A stretch of 10,463 nt of DNA from Bacillus sp. sid0103 (lineage in GTDB: Bacteria > Bacillota > Bacilli > Bacillales_B > DSM-18226). This document shows, in pieces, positions 3,375-7,717 of the stretch. The DNA is taken from contig NZ_JAHUWN010000058.1 of assembly GCF_019219025.1 (NCBI RefSeq), positions 1 through 10,463 of the forward strand, written 5' to 3'. The translations under genes and the position numbers were made by a program. Position 1 is the first letter of the stretch, and the number at the start of each line of letters is the position of its first letter. Below the pieces are notes generated by a model. It had not been told where the DNA came from and did no database searches. It saw only the letters and a program-made list of their open reading frames with translations.

Positions 3375-4493
3375 TTACTTTAGCCGCTCTCTTCTCCTTC
3401 CCAATTGTTTAGCCGCTTGCTGAGCTTTTTCTTGTTCAGGGTTGGAATAGAGTGCAGCTGTTGTTGTAGAAGAATGTCCAAGCTGGCGCATAAGAAGATG
3501 AATATCTCCCGTTTCCTCCATTAAATTTGTAGCATAAGTGTGTCTTAACTTATGGGGTGACATCGATTTATTGTGTTTATAAGCTTTTGTATACTTTTTT
3601 ACTAAACTCTCAATTGCTCGATTTGAAAGGGCAGAGGAGGTATTATGAACTTTTGCAACAAATACATACTCATTTTCTTCAGAGCTTGCTTTATATCTTT
3701 CTTGACGTATATCTAGATAGGCTTTCACATCCTGCATAGATTCAGGTACAACGGAAACGGTATCCTGTTTGCCACCTTTCCTAATAACGTTAATACGATT
3801 TTCATCAAAATCTAAATCTCGTAAACGTAGGTTTGAAAGTTCATTTACGCGAATTCCACTGCCTAAAAACAGGGAGAGGATAGCAATATCACGTTCCTTG
3901 TCTCTCTTAAAGTAAATCTTTTTTCTTGGTTCTTGTTCTAACTCATTTTCATATTCTTGTTGAATGTACTGCAAAAAGTGAATGTCATCATCATTATGGA
4001 ATATTTTCGTTGAGATTTTACTTGCTCGAGCACCAAGCGTCTCTTTTACTTTGTTGACTTCAATTTTTAACATTACATTACGATAAAAATAGGGTTCACC
4101 GTCATCATTTTCTGTTTGAGTAGTTAAATATTTATATAGGGAACGTAATGCTGATATTTTTCGGTTTATTGAGACCTTTTCTGGTTTTTTCGTTTCATCT
4201 TTTTGTACCTTAATATCACGTCTTTGAAGATATTTAAAAAAATTCTTTACATCATCCAACTTTAAATTCTCTAGGACGGATATGGGAATGTCTTTTATAT
4301 TTGATACCTTAGCAATCTTTTTTTCTGCTAACCATTCAAAAAACAATTTGTAGTCGTACAAGTAATTCAAAAGAGTTGAGGGAGAACGATTGTCAATCTT
4401 ATCGTCAACATATTCACCAACATAGGAGGGCATCATTTTGACCATTTCCATTAGTTTCTTTTCGTGTATCTGATGTTGTCTCGAATCAGCCAT
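3375..4493 (-). CDS. xerS: XerS-type tyrosine recombinase
   Basis: A 372-residue site-specific tyrosine recombinase. The N-terminal SAM-like core-binding domain spans residues about 20-125 and includes DIPISVLENLKLDDV and ISALRSLYKYLT, and the stretch NDDGEPYFYRNVM near 130 is characteristic of the single-recombinase XerS branch of streptococci and lactococci. The catalytic domain is complete: Arg215 (GSGIRVNELSNL), Lys239 (RKGGKQ), His314 and Arg317 (SPHKLRHTYA), His340 (QLGHSS) and nucleophile Tyr349 (AALYSN). The C-terminus ends in a basic tail. It should cut and rejoin DNA at palindromic sites with a 6-7-bp centre. The ATG at 4493 has AAGGAG about 10 nt upstream. A dif-like palindrome lies 34-61 bp upstream, as difSL does beside streptococcal xerS. 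It may resolve dimers of a plasmid or move the adjacent toxin-antitoxin segment. XerCD-like phage integrase is the alternative. Confidence 0.88.
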   Translation of the reverse strand: MADSRQHQIHEKKLMEMVKMMPSYVGEYVDDKIDNRSPSTLLNYLYDYKLFFEWLAEKKIAKVSNIKDIPISVLENLKLDDVKNFFKYLQRRDIKVQKDETKKPEKVSINRKISALRSLYKYLTTQTENDDGEPYFYRNVMLKIEVNKVKETLGARASKISTKIFHNDDDIHFLQYIQQEYENELEQEPRKKIYFKRDKERDIAILSLFLGSGIRVNELSNLRLRDLDFDENRINVIRKGGKQDTVSVVPESMQDVKAYLDIRQERYKASSEENEYVFVAKVHNTSSALSNRAIESLVKKYTKAYKHNKSMSPHKLRHTYATNLMEETGDIHLLMRQLGHSSTTTAALYSNPEQEKAQQAAKQLGRRRERLK

Positions 4494-4526: not shown

Positions 4527-4554
4527 TATGCGTAAAATTCAATTTTTACGTATA
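4527..4554. repeat. 28-bp dif-like palindrome A, upstream of xerS
   Basis: The left arm TATGCGTAAAA (4527-4537) and right arm TTTTACGTATA (4544-4554) are inverted repeats matching at 10 of 11 positions, around the 6-bp centre TTCAAT. The 11-6-11 layout is that of a Xer recombination site, and the inner AAAA/TTTT ends recall streptococcal difSL. The arms do not match the Bacillus XerCD dif consensus. It lies 34 bp before the xerS start codon, so it could also be an operator that controls xerS. Confidence 0.6.
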
Positions 4555-4571
4555 GTTATTAACATAATAAC
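4555..4571. repeat. Perfect 7-bp inverted repeat abutting palindrome A
   Basis: GTTATTA, spacer ACA, TAATAAC: a perfect inverted repeat directly adjoining the outer edge of palindrome A. It may be an accessory or regulator binding site for the recombinase locus. A 14-base match in AT-rich DNA could also arise by chance. Confidence 0.4.
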
Positions 4572-4634
4572 TTCATGGTAAACATAGGATTTATTGCTTT
4601 TTACTGAAAAAAAGGGAGCCGTAAGAAAGTAGGA

Positions 4635-4793
4635 TTATTTTATAGGGACTTTTACGTAATCATACTTATCCGGATACATACTTCTAAACTTACTAATAGC
4701 ATTTTCAGCAGCTTCTTTAGATTCAAAAACTTCATTTAAAATAATTGCTTCTTCATTCGTATTTATATGAAATACTCTAATTTTATATCTCAT
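4635..4793 (-). CDS. Small 52-residue protein, third gene of the toxin-antitoxin operon
   Basis: The ATG at 4793 is preceded by a very strong AAGGGGGG, and the stop is at 4635-4637. The protein starts MRYKIRVFHINTNEEAIIL, has a central helix-like FESKEAAENAISKFRSM, and ends YPDKYDYVKVPIK. The predicted pattern is beta strand, beta strand, amphipathic helix, beta strand, which suggests a compact cytoplasmic fold. No family is recognised. It starts 15 bp after the hepT-like stop on the same strand and lies inside the segment bounded by the two dif-like palindromes, so it is probably co-transcribed with the toxin-antitoxin pair. No clear hairpin terminator follows it. It could be an accessory antitoxin, a regulator or a passenger. 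Confidence 0.7.
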   Translation of the reverse strand: MRYKIRVFHINTNEEAIILNEVFESKEAAENAISKFRSMYPDKYDYVKVPIK

Positions 4794-4808
4794 AGAAAAC
4801 CCCCCTTA

Positions 4809-5213
4809 TTAATATTCTAGAATTTGTCTTGTATAATCGGTAAAATCACTTAGATGCTTATCCACGATTTGATTTAGAATGTCTATATTAAGGGTTTGGT
4901 AATCGTGTACAGCAATGTTTCGAAATCCTACCATTGCTTTTAGTCTTTTGGCTATATTTTCGTCTATAATCGAGTTAGACTGAAGCATATCAAACGCATC
5001 TCTACTGGTCTGAGGCAATCCAAGGCGTTGTTCAGAAACGATATGCATGGCCAAGTCTATAGAGGCTTCACATGAACGTTGTATGTTTAGAATAATTGAA
5101 TCTTGTTTCGTATAGTCTTTTAGATTAGCGGGATCGTTTGCATATACTTCTTGTATGCGGTTTATACAGCGTTCAATCACACTTATTTTGTTCAAAATCA
5201 CATCATTTTTCAT
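4809..5213 (-). CDS. hepT: HepT-like HEPN toxin (DUF86 family RNase)
   Basis: A 134-residue all-helical HEPN-domain protein. The diagnostic RX4HXY motif is seen as RNIAVHDY, with Arg98, His103 and Tyr105, and the family segment DSIILNIQRSCEASIDLAMH lies at 38-57. In known HepT/MntA pairs HepT is a toxic ribonuclease, dimerises through this helix bundle, and is silenced when MntA adds AMP units to the tyrosine of the motif, here Tyr105. The start is taken as the ATG at 5213 because it overlaps the antitoxin stop by 11 bp, a normal coupled arrangement; a GTG at 5231 would add six residues but has no ribosome-binding site. It is the second gene of a three-gene minus-strand operon. All key residues are intact, so it is predicted active. 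Confidence 0.88.
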   Translation of the reverse strand: MKNDVILNKISVIERCINRIQEVYANDPANLKDYTKQDSIILNIQRSCEASIDLAMHIVSEQRLGLPQTSRDAFDMLQSNSIIDENIAKRLKAMVGFRNIAVHDYQTLNIDILNQIVDKHLSDFTDYTRQILEY

Positions 5214-5610
5214 AAACAGACCCACTTTCACTGATATTTTTTAAGATATTCTTCCGTTCTTCGTTCAACTTTGTGTACATGCTAAGAGCAGTCATTTGTT
5301 GATTCCTCAGTAATGTGTCATCTTTTGAGTAAATGACAATACCGGTTGTGTAAATCTGTGCCTTAAAAACGGTTGATGCCGTCCCCAGATTAACCAGATC
5401 CACATCTATTTTGAGGATATCTGCTAATTCTTGAGCTAATAAAAAAATCTCATATGTAGAAAGTGATGAATCCTGATTGTAGAAAGCCACATCAATGTCG
5501 CTGTCCTTATGTGTACAGCTTTTCGCATAAGAACCAAACACAATAATAAATGAAGGATTCATTTTGCCTATAAGGAAATCTTGAATTTTTTGAAACATTT
5601 CTGATTTCAT
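5203..5610 (-). CDS. mntA: MntA-like minimal nucleotidyltransferase antitoxin
   Basis: A 135-residue protein of the minimal nucleotidyltransferase (Pol-beta-like) fold. The signature GSX10DXD is complete: Gly26-Ser27 in VFGSYAK and Asp38/Asp40 in DSDIDVAF. A probable third metal-binding acid is Asp71 in KIDVDLVNL. In HepT/MntA systems such proteins use ATP to AMPylate the toxin's tyrosine and so neutralise it. The C-terminus (residues about 100-135) is helical and charged and may contact the partner. The ATG at 5610 has GGGAGCG about 7 nt upstream and a good promoter at 5640-5668. Its stop overlaps the toxin start. Dif-like palindrome B lies directly upstream of the promoter. Confidence 0.88.
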   Translation of the reverse strand: MKSEMFQKIQDFLIGKMNPSFIIVFGSYAKSCTHKDSDIDVAFYNQDSSLSTYEIFLLAQELADILKIDVDLVNLGTASTVFKAQIYTTGIVIYSKDDTLLRNQQMTALSMYTKLNEERKNILKNISESGSVYEK

Positions 5611-5639
5611 AAGACACGCTCCCTAATGATAATATGAAT

Positions 5640-5668
5640 AGTATACCAAACATTCATTCTTATGTAAA
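5640..5668 (-). promoter_or_regulatory. SigA-type promoter of the mntA-hepT operon
   Basis: On the minus strand, a -35 box TTTACA (5663-5668), a spacer of exactly 17 bp and a -10 box TATACT (5640-5645) preceded by TGG. It is placed to start transcription shortly before the mntA ribosome-binding site. Palindrome B begins 2 bp upstream of the -35 box, so a protein bound there could touch RNA polymerase. Confidence 0.7.
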
Positions 5669-5669
5669 T

Positions 5670-5697
5670 TATTCGTAAAACTGGTATTTTACGCACA
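5670..5697. repeat. 28-bp dif-like palindrome B, upstream of mntA
   Basis: The left arm TATTCGTAAAA (5670-5680) and right arm TTTTACGCACA (5687-5697) match as inverted repeats at 9 of 11 positions, around the centre CTGGTA. The inner seven bases of both arms, CGTAAAA and TTTTACG, are identical to those of palindrome A, 1143 bp away, and the 6-bp spacing is the same; the centre differs. A further half-copy, AGCGTAAAT, lies at 5704-5712. Together with palindrome A it brackets the toxin-antitoxin operon exactly. Confidence 0.6.
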
Positions 5698-6687: not shown

Positions 6688-6740
6688 TTAAATTATCCTG
6701 CCCTTTAGTTCAATAAAAAAGAAGGCTGCCGCAGCAACCC
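6688..6740 (-). repeat. Terminator-like hairpin plus repeat copy
   Basis: On the minus strand the hairpin GGTTGCTGCGGCAGCC (6724-6739) is followed by a T-rich run (6712-6722) and then TTGAACTAAAGGGCAGG (6696-6712), a relative of the palindromic repeat seen elsewhere. No minus-strand gene ends here, so it seems an orphan. The same 16-bp hairpin sequence recurs at 7627-7642. Confidence 0.5.
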
Positions 6741-7612: not shown

Positions 7613-7717
7613 GGAACAAGAAAAAAGGCTGCCGCAGCAACCTGGTCTTTTTCAACTCTAGCACCCGATAGTTTAAGTACGATTCTTCACAAACTATTAG
7701 CTCGTTTAGTTCAATAA
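7493..7717 (+). pseudogene. Truncated IS1182-family transposase, N-terminus fused to repeat DNA
   Basis: The ATG at 7493 with GGGGGA upstream begins a frame whose first 40 or so residues (KLELIDLNVFVPSNHILRQI, then NEKIDF) match the N-terminal DUF772-type domain of IS1182/IS5-like transposases, which helps bind DNA. After about 7607 the frame leaves the transposase and encodes repeat sequence (GSGTRKKAAAATWSFSTLAP onward), ending at TAA 7715-7717. The DDE catalytic core is absent, so it cannot be an active transposase. It is best read as a remnant joined to unrelated DNA by deletion. Confidence 0.75.
7627..7716 (+). repeat. Hairpin plus two copies of the palindromic repeat
   Basis: The hairpin GGCTGCCGCAGCAACC (7627-7642, identical to 6724-6739) is followed by a T-run and TTCAACTCTAGCACCCGATA with GTTTAAG (7651-7677). 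A second weaker copy with AACTA and TAGTT arms lies at 7692-7711. The unit hairpin, T-run, repeat is the same as at 6688-6740 and 8371-8446. Confidence 0.5.

What the first reader, a model, noticed from the sequence alone, without database searches (positions are those of the whole stretch)
4527..5697. Toxin-antitoxin operon bracketed by two Xer-like sites beside a XerS-type recombinase
Two 28-bp palindromes with the same 11-6-11 design and identical inner arm bases (CGTAAAA / TTTTACG) enclose exactly one transcription unit: mntA, hepT and a 52-residue gene. One site is 34 bp upstream of xerS, the position difSL takes in streptococci. This looks like the pdif modules of Acinetobacter plasmids, in which Xer sites flank toxin-antitoxin or resistance cargo, but with a single-recombinase XerS system in a Bacillaceae host. 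The sites and gene positions are seen directly; mobility is inferred. The centres differ (TTCAAT against CTGGTA), so recombination between this very pair may be poor.
Basis: partly seen in the sequence, partly recalled or inferred. Interest (0 to 1): 0.8.

Follow-up and report, generated by a model that had tools for sequence, protein, structure and literature searches.

The report
Swappable toxin-gene slot beside XerS recombinase
Two matching DNA sites next to a recombinase gene mark the ends of a slot in Bacillus-type bacteria, often on large plasmids, that holds one of many different toxin or defence gene sets, and the DNA carries traces of past swaps at those sites.

Summary
The two palindromes are the only exact matches in the window. 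They belong to a conserved design: of 59 non-redundant xerS loci, 44 carry a site upstream of xerS (P) and a second farther upstream (D). D is an inverted copy of P in its arms, which co-vary between clades; the 6-bp centres differ, P nearly constant and D variable. Between them lies one operon, read towards xerS in 35 of 35 slots with an ORF of 100 aa or more: MntA-HepT here, elsewhere HipA-like, RES, RelA/SpoT, Fic, HNH or unknown genes. Homology steps sit at the sites: the window and Bacillus sp. OV166 are 99% identical up to P and 71% beyond. One relative has a hybrid site, D's left half and P's right half, without cargo. Thirteen of 15 other, mostly chromosomal xerS loci have one site and no D. 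Best reading: a single-recombinase system built like Acinetobacter dif modules. That XerS does the exchanging is inferred; D could instead be mainly an operator.

The parts
3375..4493 (-). xerS, tyrosine recombinase of 372 aa
   Evidence: NCBIfam XerS 435 bits against cut-off 267; Pfam Phage_integrase; R215, K239, K242, H314, R317, H340 and Y349 invariant among 11 relatives (their catalytic role is recalled)
4527..4554 (-). Site P (xerS-proximal), core 4531-4550; read in xerS direction CGTAAAA-ATTGAA-TTTTACG
   Evidence: identity step against L048 at its right edge
4635..4793 (-). 52-codon ORF, optional third gene of the cargo
   Evidence: Pfam DUF7336 only weakly, 18.5 bits against cut-off 25
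4809..5231 (-). hepT, RNase toxin of a type VII toxin-antitoxin pair (GTG start at 5231; ATG at 5213 equally likely)
   Evidence: NCBIfam HepT 167.8 bits; R-x4-H-D-Y visible in the translation
5203..5610 (-). mntA, adenylyltransferase antitoxin
   Evidence: NCBIfam MntA 111.2 bits; GS-x10-D-x-D visible in the translation
5640..5668 (-). Promoter-like sequence of the cargo: -35 TTTACA (5663-5668), 17 bp, -10 TATACT (5640-5645)
   Evidence: consensus match only, 10 of 12
5670..5697 (-). Site D (distal), core 5674-5693; read in xerS direction CGTAAAA-TACCAG-TTTTACG

Best explanation
P and D are two recombination sites of the adjacent XerS and delimit an exchangeable one-operon slot. Both have arms around a 6-bp centre. 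The arms of D are those of P in inverted order, so the same half-site faces the cargo from both sides, while the centres differ. As with heterospecific sites in recombinase-mediated cassette exchange, P can recombine with P, and D with a matching D, on another replicon; the resulting cointegrates resolve with flanks or cargo swapped, while P x D excision or inversion within one molecule stays rare. P would also be the resolution site of the replicon, as difSL is for streptococcal chromosomes. The cargo is expressed from a promoter fixed just inside D and is mostly of toxin-antitoxin or defence type (MntA-HepT here). Shown by sequence: architecture, co-variation, cargo diversity, identity steps at both sites, one hybrid site without cargo. 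Inferred: XerS as the actor, the cointegrate route, the benefit to the replicon.
For: Two site classes beside xerS in 44 of 59 loci. Arms co-vary in inverted register: 2.63 mismatches of 22 against 4.47 when D is permuted, 0 of 2000 as low. Strict D in 25 of 193 genomes with no hit of the reversed pattern; 24 of the 25 have XerS against 69 of 168 without D. Unrelated cargo, always towards xerS, with sister XerS holding different cargo. Window and L048: 99% up to P, 71% from core +20 to +26 on. All 10 pairs of five Peribacillus-type loci lose homology 0-38 bp outside D. L015 and L172 share only the left of an identical D. L028: D left half joined to P right half, no cargo. One-site xerS loci without D.
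Against: No binding, reads or assay. D centres vary (25 kinds in 43 loci), which limits D x D exchange if equal centres are needed, and some D steps join unlike centres (L012/L017, L165/L168). In some sister pairs the D-promoter stretch is kept while cargo changes (L005/L031, L015/L016), so the swap edge can lie inside D. Nine of 59 loci have neither site. The L039/L170 difference is not base-perfect at D. Nine of 26 block edges lie at neither site. The reversed pattern also gives places: 6 against 38 on plasmids, 18 against 57 in 38 genomes. The cargo label is partly inherited: 9 changes against 13.2 shuffled. Slippage between short repeats could make L028.
Confidence: 0.62

Rival explanations
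1. D is an operator. XerS bound at D controls the cargo promoter that starts 5-6 bp away, tying toxin or defence expression to XerS level. Only P is recombined; cargo changes come from ordinary recombination that uses the conserved D-promoter and P-xerS stretches.
For: 39 of 43 loci have a promoter-like match of 9/12 or better within 60 bp inside D (22% in shuffles), the -35 five or six bases after the core in 23. D and about 70 bp after it are conserved before unrelated cargo in L005/L031 and L015/L016. D centres vary, which an operator would allow.
Against: Homology is lost right outside D in many pairs. L015/L172 share only the left of D. The L028 hybrid joins D to P within the site.
Confidence: 0.2
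2. D is an accessory site that XerS binds but does not recombine; with P it makes resolution selective, as accessory sequences do at other plasmid resolution sites (recalled).
For: Same arms, unlike centre, close to P.
Against: D-P spacing runs from 341 to 3045 bp and the cargo varies; identity steps and the hybrid involve D.
Confidence: 0.08
3. The sites are used by the host's own XerC/XerD pair (CodV/RipX in Bacillus), as true pdif sites are, and xerS is a neighbour only.
For: The outer half-site TTCGTATAA resembles the XerC half-site of Acinetobacter pdif sites in a table passage of PMC13141974.
Against: P is adjacent to xerS; D occurs with XerS in 24 of 25 genomes against 69 of 168; one-site xerS loci have a related site at the same place.
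Confidence: 0.07
4. Chance palindromes.
For: Other CGTAAAA palindromes, for instance with centre GTGTAC, occur on Peribacillus plasmids, and the reversed pattern has some hits.
Against: None in 200 shuffles; two classes conserved in place and orientation in 44 of 59 loci.
Confidence: 0.01

Closest known systems
Acinetobacter dif modules (pdif or xrs cassettes); passages of PMC13141974 and PMC11705084 seen
   Same: Cargo, toxin-antitoxin genes among it, between inversely oriented Xer-type sites with 6-bp centres that often differ; exchange thought to go through cointegrates between sites with equal or near-equal centres.
   Different: Those use host XerC and XerD on distinct half-sites, and plasmids carry alternating C and D modules. 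Here one XerS gene lies beside the site, usually with one slot, one cargo orientation and a promoter next to D.
XerS/difSL of streptococci and lactococci; passages of PMC5357621 and PMC2731167 seen
   Same: XerS family protein with its site just upstream of its gene.
   Different: difSL is 31 bp with an 11-bp central region and is chromosomal, with no second site or cargo described in the passages seen; here 28 bp with a 6-bp centre, two sites and a slot.
tet(45) element of Bacillus cereus 9i with a difSL-like site; passages of PMC4876114 seen
   Same: A Bacillus element linked to a difSL-like site and an integrase called XerS-like.
   Different: Two integrases and an excisionase-like gene; the paper says its integrase lacks significant similarity to streptococcal XerS. 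No inverted two-site slot is described in the passages seen.
Recombinase-mediated cassette exchange with heterospecific sites (recalled, engineered)
   Same: Same recombinase arms with incompatible centres on the two sides of a cassette.
   Different: Engineered tool; here natural and only inferred.

Membership tests
XerS tyrosine recombinase (NCBIfam NF003462) | Score over the curated cut-off | tested here: met
   435.2 bits against 267
XerS tyrosine recombinase (NCBIfam NF003462) | Recombination at an adjacent site | not testable with these tools
   Site P found at the expected place; activity not testable
Type VII MntA-HepT toxin-antitoxin system | Both proteins pass the equivalog cut-offs, genes adjacent | tested here: met
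   111.2 and 167.8 bits against 60; adjacent and overlapping ORFs
XerS/difSL system | 31-bp site with an 11-bp central region | tested here: not met
   28 bp, 6-bp centre, against the description in PMC5357621 passages
XerS/difSL system | Site immediately upstream of xerS | tested here: met
   34 bp from the start codon
XerS/difSL system | Chromosomal, at the replication terminus | not tested
   No genome held for the window
Acinetobacter-type dif (pdif) modules | Cargo flanked by inversely oriented sites with 6-bp centres | tested here: met
   For the family: inverted fit better in 31, direct in 1, tie in 11 of 43 loci. In the window itself the 7-bp inner arms are symmetric
Acinetobacter-type dif (pdif) modules | Distinct XerC and XerD half-sites, recombination by host XerCD | not testable with these tools
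   Half-sites differ in many relatives, but a XerS gene is adjacent; dependence cannot be tested here
Acinetobacter-type dif (pdif) modules | Several modules with alternating site orientation on one plasmid | tested here: not met
   14 plasmids scanned whole: 24 of 38 places are D or P of one pair per plasmid, plus one relic P. Tandem D sites and one tandem D-P unit occur in genome loci
Acinetobacter-type dif (pdif) modules | Crossovers lie within the sites | tested here: inconclusive
   15 of 19 chosen pairs step between core -10 and +27; hybrid site in L028; no reads or assay

The most novel reading that the evidence does not exclude
A natural single-recombinase cassette-exchange platform in Bacillaceae: XerS with a constant site P and a variable partner site D holds one interchangeable toxin-antitoxin or anti-phage operon behind a resident promoter. 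It would be a Gram-positive, single-slot counterpart of dif modules and integrons, with centre incompatibility protecting the slot from excising itself.
Probability: 0.45. Interest if true: 0.85.

Novelty: new variant of a known kind. Interest (0 to 1): 0.7.

Why it matters
If right, it gives a concrete, readable route by which plasmids and other replicons of Gram-positive bacteria exchange toxin-antitoxin and defence genes, and new cargo could be found simply by looking between D and P; the slots seen already hold genes of unknown function. It offers one recombinase with two natural sites of unlike centre that can be tested in Bacillus subtilis, and a sharp prediction: the 6-bp centre decides which replicons can exchange with which.

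Tried and rejected
Chance was rejected, and so was a plain conserved operon. Routine inversion of the cargo is not supported: 35 of 35 slots with an ORF of 100 aa or more read towards xerS. A promoter fixed at P was not found; the best score was about that of shuffles, 8.37 against 8.24. Three MntA-HepT operons on Priestia and Cytobacillus kochii plasmids have no D or P by the matrix at threshold 12 (L098-L100), so the operon does not by itself bring the sites. A motif close to TTATGTAAAC left of P (21 of 45; 0.6% in shuffles; 1 upstream of D) is absent, by my own reading of the printed rows, from the 14 loci that I class as other cargo; its role is unexplained. Of 10 cargo proteins PADLOC gave only weak hits for L005 and L031 and hits to a candidate family (PDC-M03A, best 6e-12) for the HipA-like kinase of L007.

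Rows left out. One search kept 63 of 95 loci (94 and the window) and merged 4 near-duplicates (L011, L023, L027, L036) to 59. Left out: L028, L029, L066, L069, L072 (partial or broken XerS), L049 and L060 (second copies of records), and L067, L068, L070, L071, L073-L079, L081-L094 (more distant). L028 later proved important. The matrices were trained on these same loci. Among the 44 with two sites, the proximal site of L005 and L031 was caught by the D matrix, and the distal site of L022 only on the other strand. The D/P list has 45 loci because L026, with a weak D, was added; L022 and L026 were dropped, and also L039. The 19 pairs were picked mostly because they showed a step; one search is less selected. 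In one search the XerS row of L003 is a badly broken frame with a very long branch. By-eye classing of cargo is mine.

Full report
1. What is in the window. The two palindromes are real and are the only exact CGTAAAA-N6-TTTTACG in 10463 bases; 200 dinucleotide shuffles gave none. They enclose mntA, hepT and a 52-codon ORF on the minus strand, and one begins 34 bp from the xerS start. MntA, HepT and XerS pass their NCBIfam cut-offs. No whole genome is held for the window, so its replicon is unknown.

2. Relatives. A protein search of plasmids and one scan of GTDB genomes (489 encoding stretches, best 80 kept) gave the loci used. Read in xerS direction there are two classes of site: P, 45-128 bp before xerS in most loci, TTCGTAAAA-ATTGTA-TTATACGAACA or variants; and D, about 0.4-3.1 kb before xerS in most, TTCGTATAA-TACYTA-TTTTACGAATA or variants. 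With matrices trained on the same loci, 44 of 59 non-redundant loci have two sites, 5 only P, 1 only D, 9 neither; the null at that threshold was 0 (P) and 0.03 (D) per 10 kb of strand. Two of the P-only or neither loci (L021, L063) begin within 500 bp of a contig end.

3. D is an inverted P with another centre. Over 43 loci the arms fit in inverted register with 2.63 mismatches of 22, against 4.47 after permuting D (0 of 2000 as low). Inverted wins in 31, direct in 1, tie in 11. Clade variants move together, such as TTATACA with TGTATAA, and TTTAATG with CATTAAA. Centres do not match (3.53 of 6 mismatched; permuted 3.46). P is ATTGTA or ATTGAA in 36 of 43; D shows 25 centres. Relatedness inflates the permutation result: it shows co-variation by clade, not independent events.

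4. Not only beside the bait. A strict D pattern over 193 genomes of one GTDB family matched in 25, the reversed control in none of them. Of the 25, 24 have XerS at E 1e-70 or better, one of these broken; of the other 168 genomes 69 have it (Fisher p 6e-8). Looser patterns have a background: on 14 whole plasmids 38 places against 6 for the reversed pattern, 24 of the 38 being D or P of a pair; in 38 genomes 57 against 18. Fetched D regions show D-cargo-P with xerS (L156, L171), D-mntA-hepT-P with no xerS in the stretch (L165-L167; L168 with one fused frame; also L095 and L096), and D with no P in the stretch before other genes, for instance a JetD-like gene in L154. In the genome of L035 such a pair lies about 12 kb from xerS in the same direction.

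5. Cargo. In 45 intervals, 35 hold an ORF of 100 aa or more, and in all 35 these read towards xerS. In 21 of them the first ORF starts 68-92 bp from the middle of D; in the others 13-305 bp. mntA with hepT is commonest (17 of 45, one with a short hepT). Others by Pfam: HipA-like (26.4 bits, cut-off 30.5) with a 129-aa partner, RES, NERD, RelA/SpoT with DUF6037, HNH_5, DUF4238, DUF1173, DUF6710, proteasome-like, and unknowns. Fic (92 bits) sits in a second D-cargo-P-recombinase unit of L047. A pair in L172 resembles Pycsar, both just under Pfam's cut-offs. Ten of 45 have no such ORF. A tree of 42 XerS needs 22 changes for 17 cargo labels (16 is the least possible); mntA-hepT needs at least 8. 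The label is still partly inherited: 9 changes against 13.2 shuffled. Sister pairs with different cargo include L015/L016, L005/L031, L057/L058 and L033/L040.

6. Promoter. Within 60 bp inside D, 39 of 43 loci have a sigma-A-like match of 9/12 or better (22% in shuffles), the -35 five or six bases after the core in 23.

7. Footprints. (a) Window and Bacillus sp. OV166 (L048): 97-100% per 100 bp over about 1.2 kb up to P, then about 71% from core +20 to +26; the xerS genes are 74% identical. (b) Five Peribacillus-type loci (L001, L010, L012, L017, L019): in all 10 pairs, 87-94% identical over the block, homology ends 0-38 bp outside D. (c) L015 and L172 share 92% left of an identical D and no more than background to the right; L038 and L164, in one genome, share sequence from 7 bp outside D through P into the first codons of xerS; L096 and L168 are 99% identical for 7.4 kb from 10 bp outside D. 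(d) L039 has about 485 bp more, between two D sites, where L170 has one D; the last 15 bp before D differ, so this is not base-perfect. (e) L028 (Peribacillus simplex RUG2-6) has one site 50 bp before xerS: left side and centre follow D (85-86% over about 60 bp to L001 and L010), right side follows P (94-96% to L010, L012, L017 and L019), and there is no cargo; its XerS lacks about 19 codons. It is the only such junction in 43 genomes, 6 of which have a P-type junction. Of 26 pairs with one block across the xerS start at 80% or more, the left edge lies at D in 10, at P in 7, between in 7, beyond D in 2. Of 19 chosen pairs, 15 step between core -10 and +27. Pairs are not independent, and a conserved P can by itself place an edge there; (a), (b) and (e) suffer least from that.

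8. One-site control. Of 15 more xerS loci, 13 (35-40% identical XerS) have one site 53-74 bp before xerS and no D in the roughly 4 kb fetched upstream; the centre is TATAAA in 10. Ten of the 13 lie on contigs of 4 Mb or more. The other two are of the P or D/P kind, although on contigs of 3.0 and 4.7 Mb, so the slot is not confined to plasmids.

9. Literature. Passages only were seen of PMC5357621, PMC2731167 (difSL), PMC13141974, PMC11705084 (dif modules, xrs cassettes) and PMC4876114 (tet(45) element). Searches listed no paper whose title or shown abstract start describes XerS-flanked cargo in Bacillaceae; the library holds open-licence papers only.

10. Verdict. By design it works like a dif module with one, locally encoded recombinase. 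It is not filed as a pdif module (alternating modules not found, XerCD dependence untestable) nor as difSL (site length and centre differ). Main open question: exchange site or operator.

Noticed in passing
L174-L183 and L186-L188, 53-74 bp upstream of xerS: Thirteen xerS loci, ten on contigs of 4 Mb or more, have a single palindromic site (TTACGTAAAA-TATAAA-TTTGACGTAA in ten): probably the chromosomal dif of a XerS system in this Bacillaceae family.
   Followed up: partly
L097:5181 onward (NZ_CP011009.1 about 58180): A second P followed by the first codons of an xerS copy that then breaks off, on the same plasmid as L012.
   Followed up: partly
L047:9198-11818: Second D-cargo-P-recombinase unit right behind the first, with arms of its own (CGTTAAA type) and a Fic gene as cargo.
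   Followed up: partly
NZ_CP085396.1:92616 and 161615; NZ_CP011009.1:79776 (one mismatch): Another palindrome family, CGTAAAAGTGTACTTTTACG, on Peribacillus plasmids, away from xerS.
   Followed up: no
window 6722-6739 and 7625-7642: Exact 18-bp repeat AAGGCTGCCGCAGCAACC, none in 200 shuffles; perhaps a small dispersed element.
   Followed up: no
45 bp left of P, 21 of 45 loci: A motif close to TTATGTAAAC, often part of an AT-rich palindrome, seen with MntA-HepT-type cargo or remnants.
   Followed up: partly
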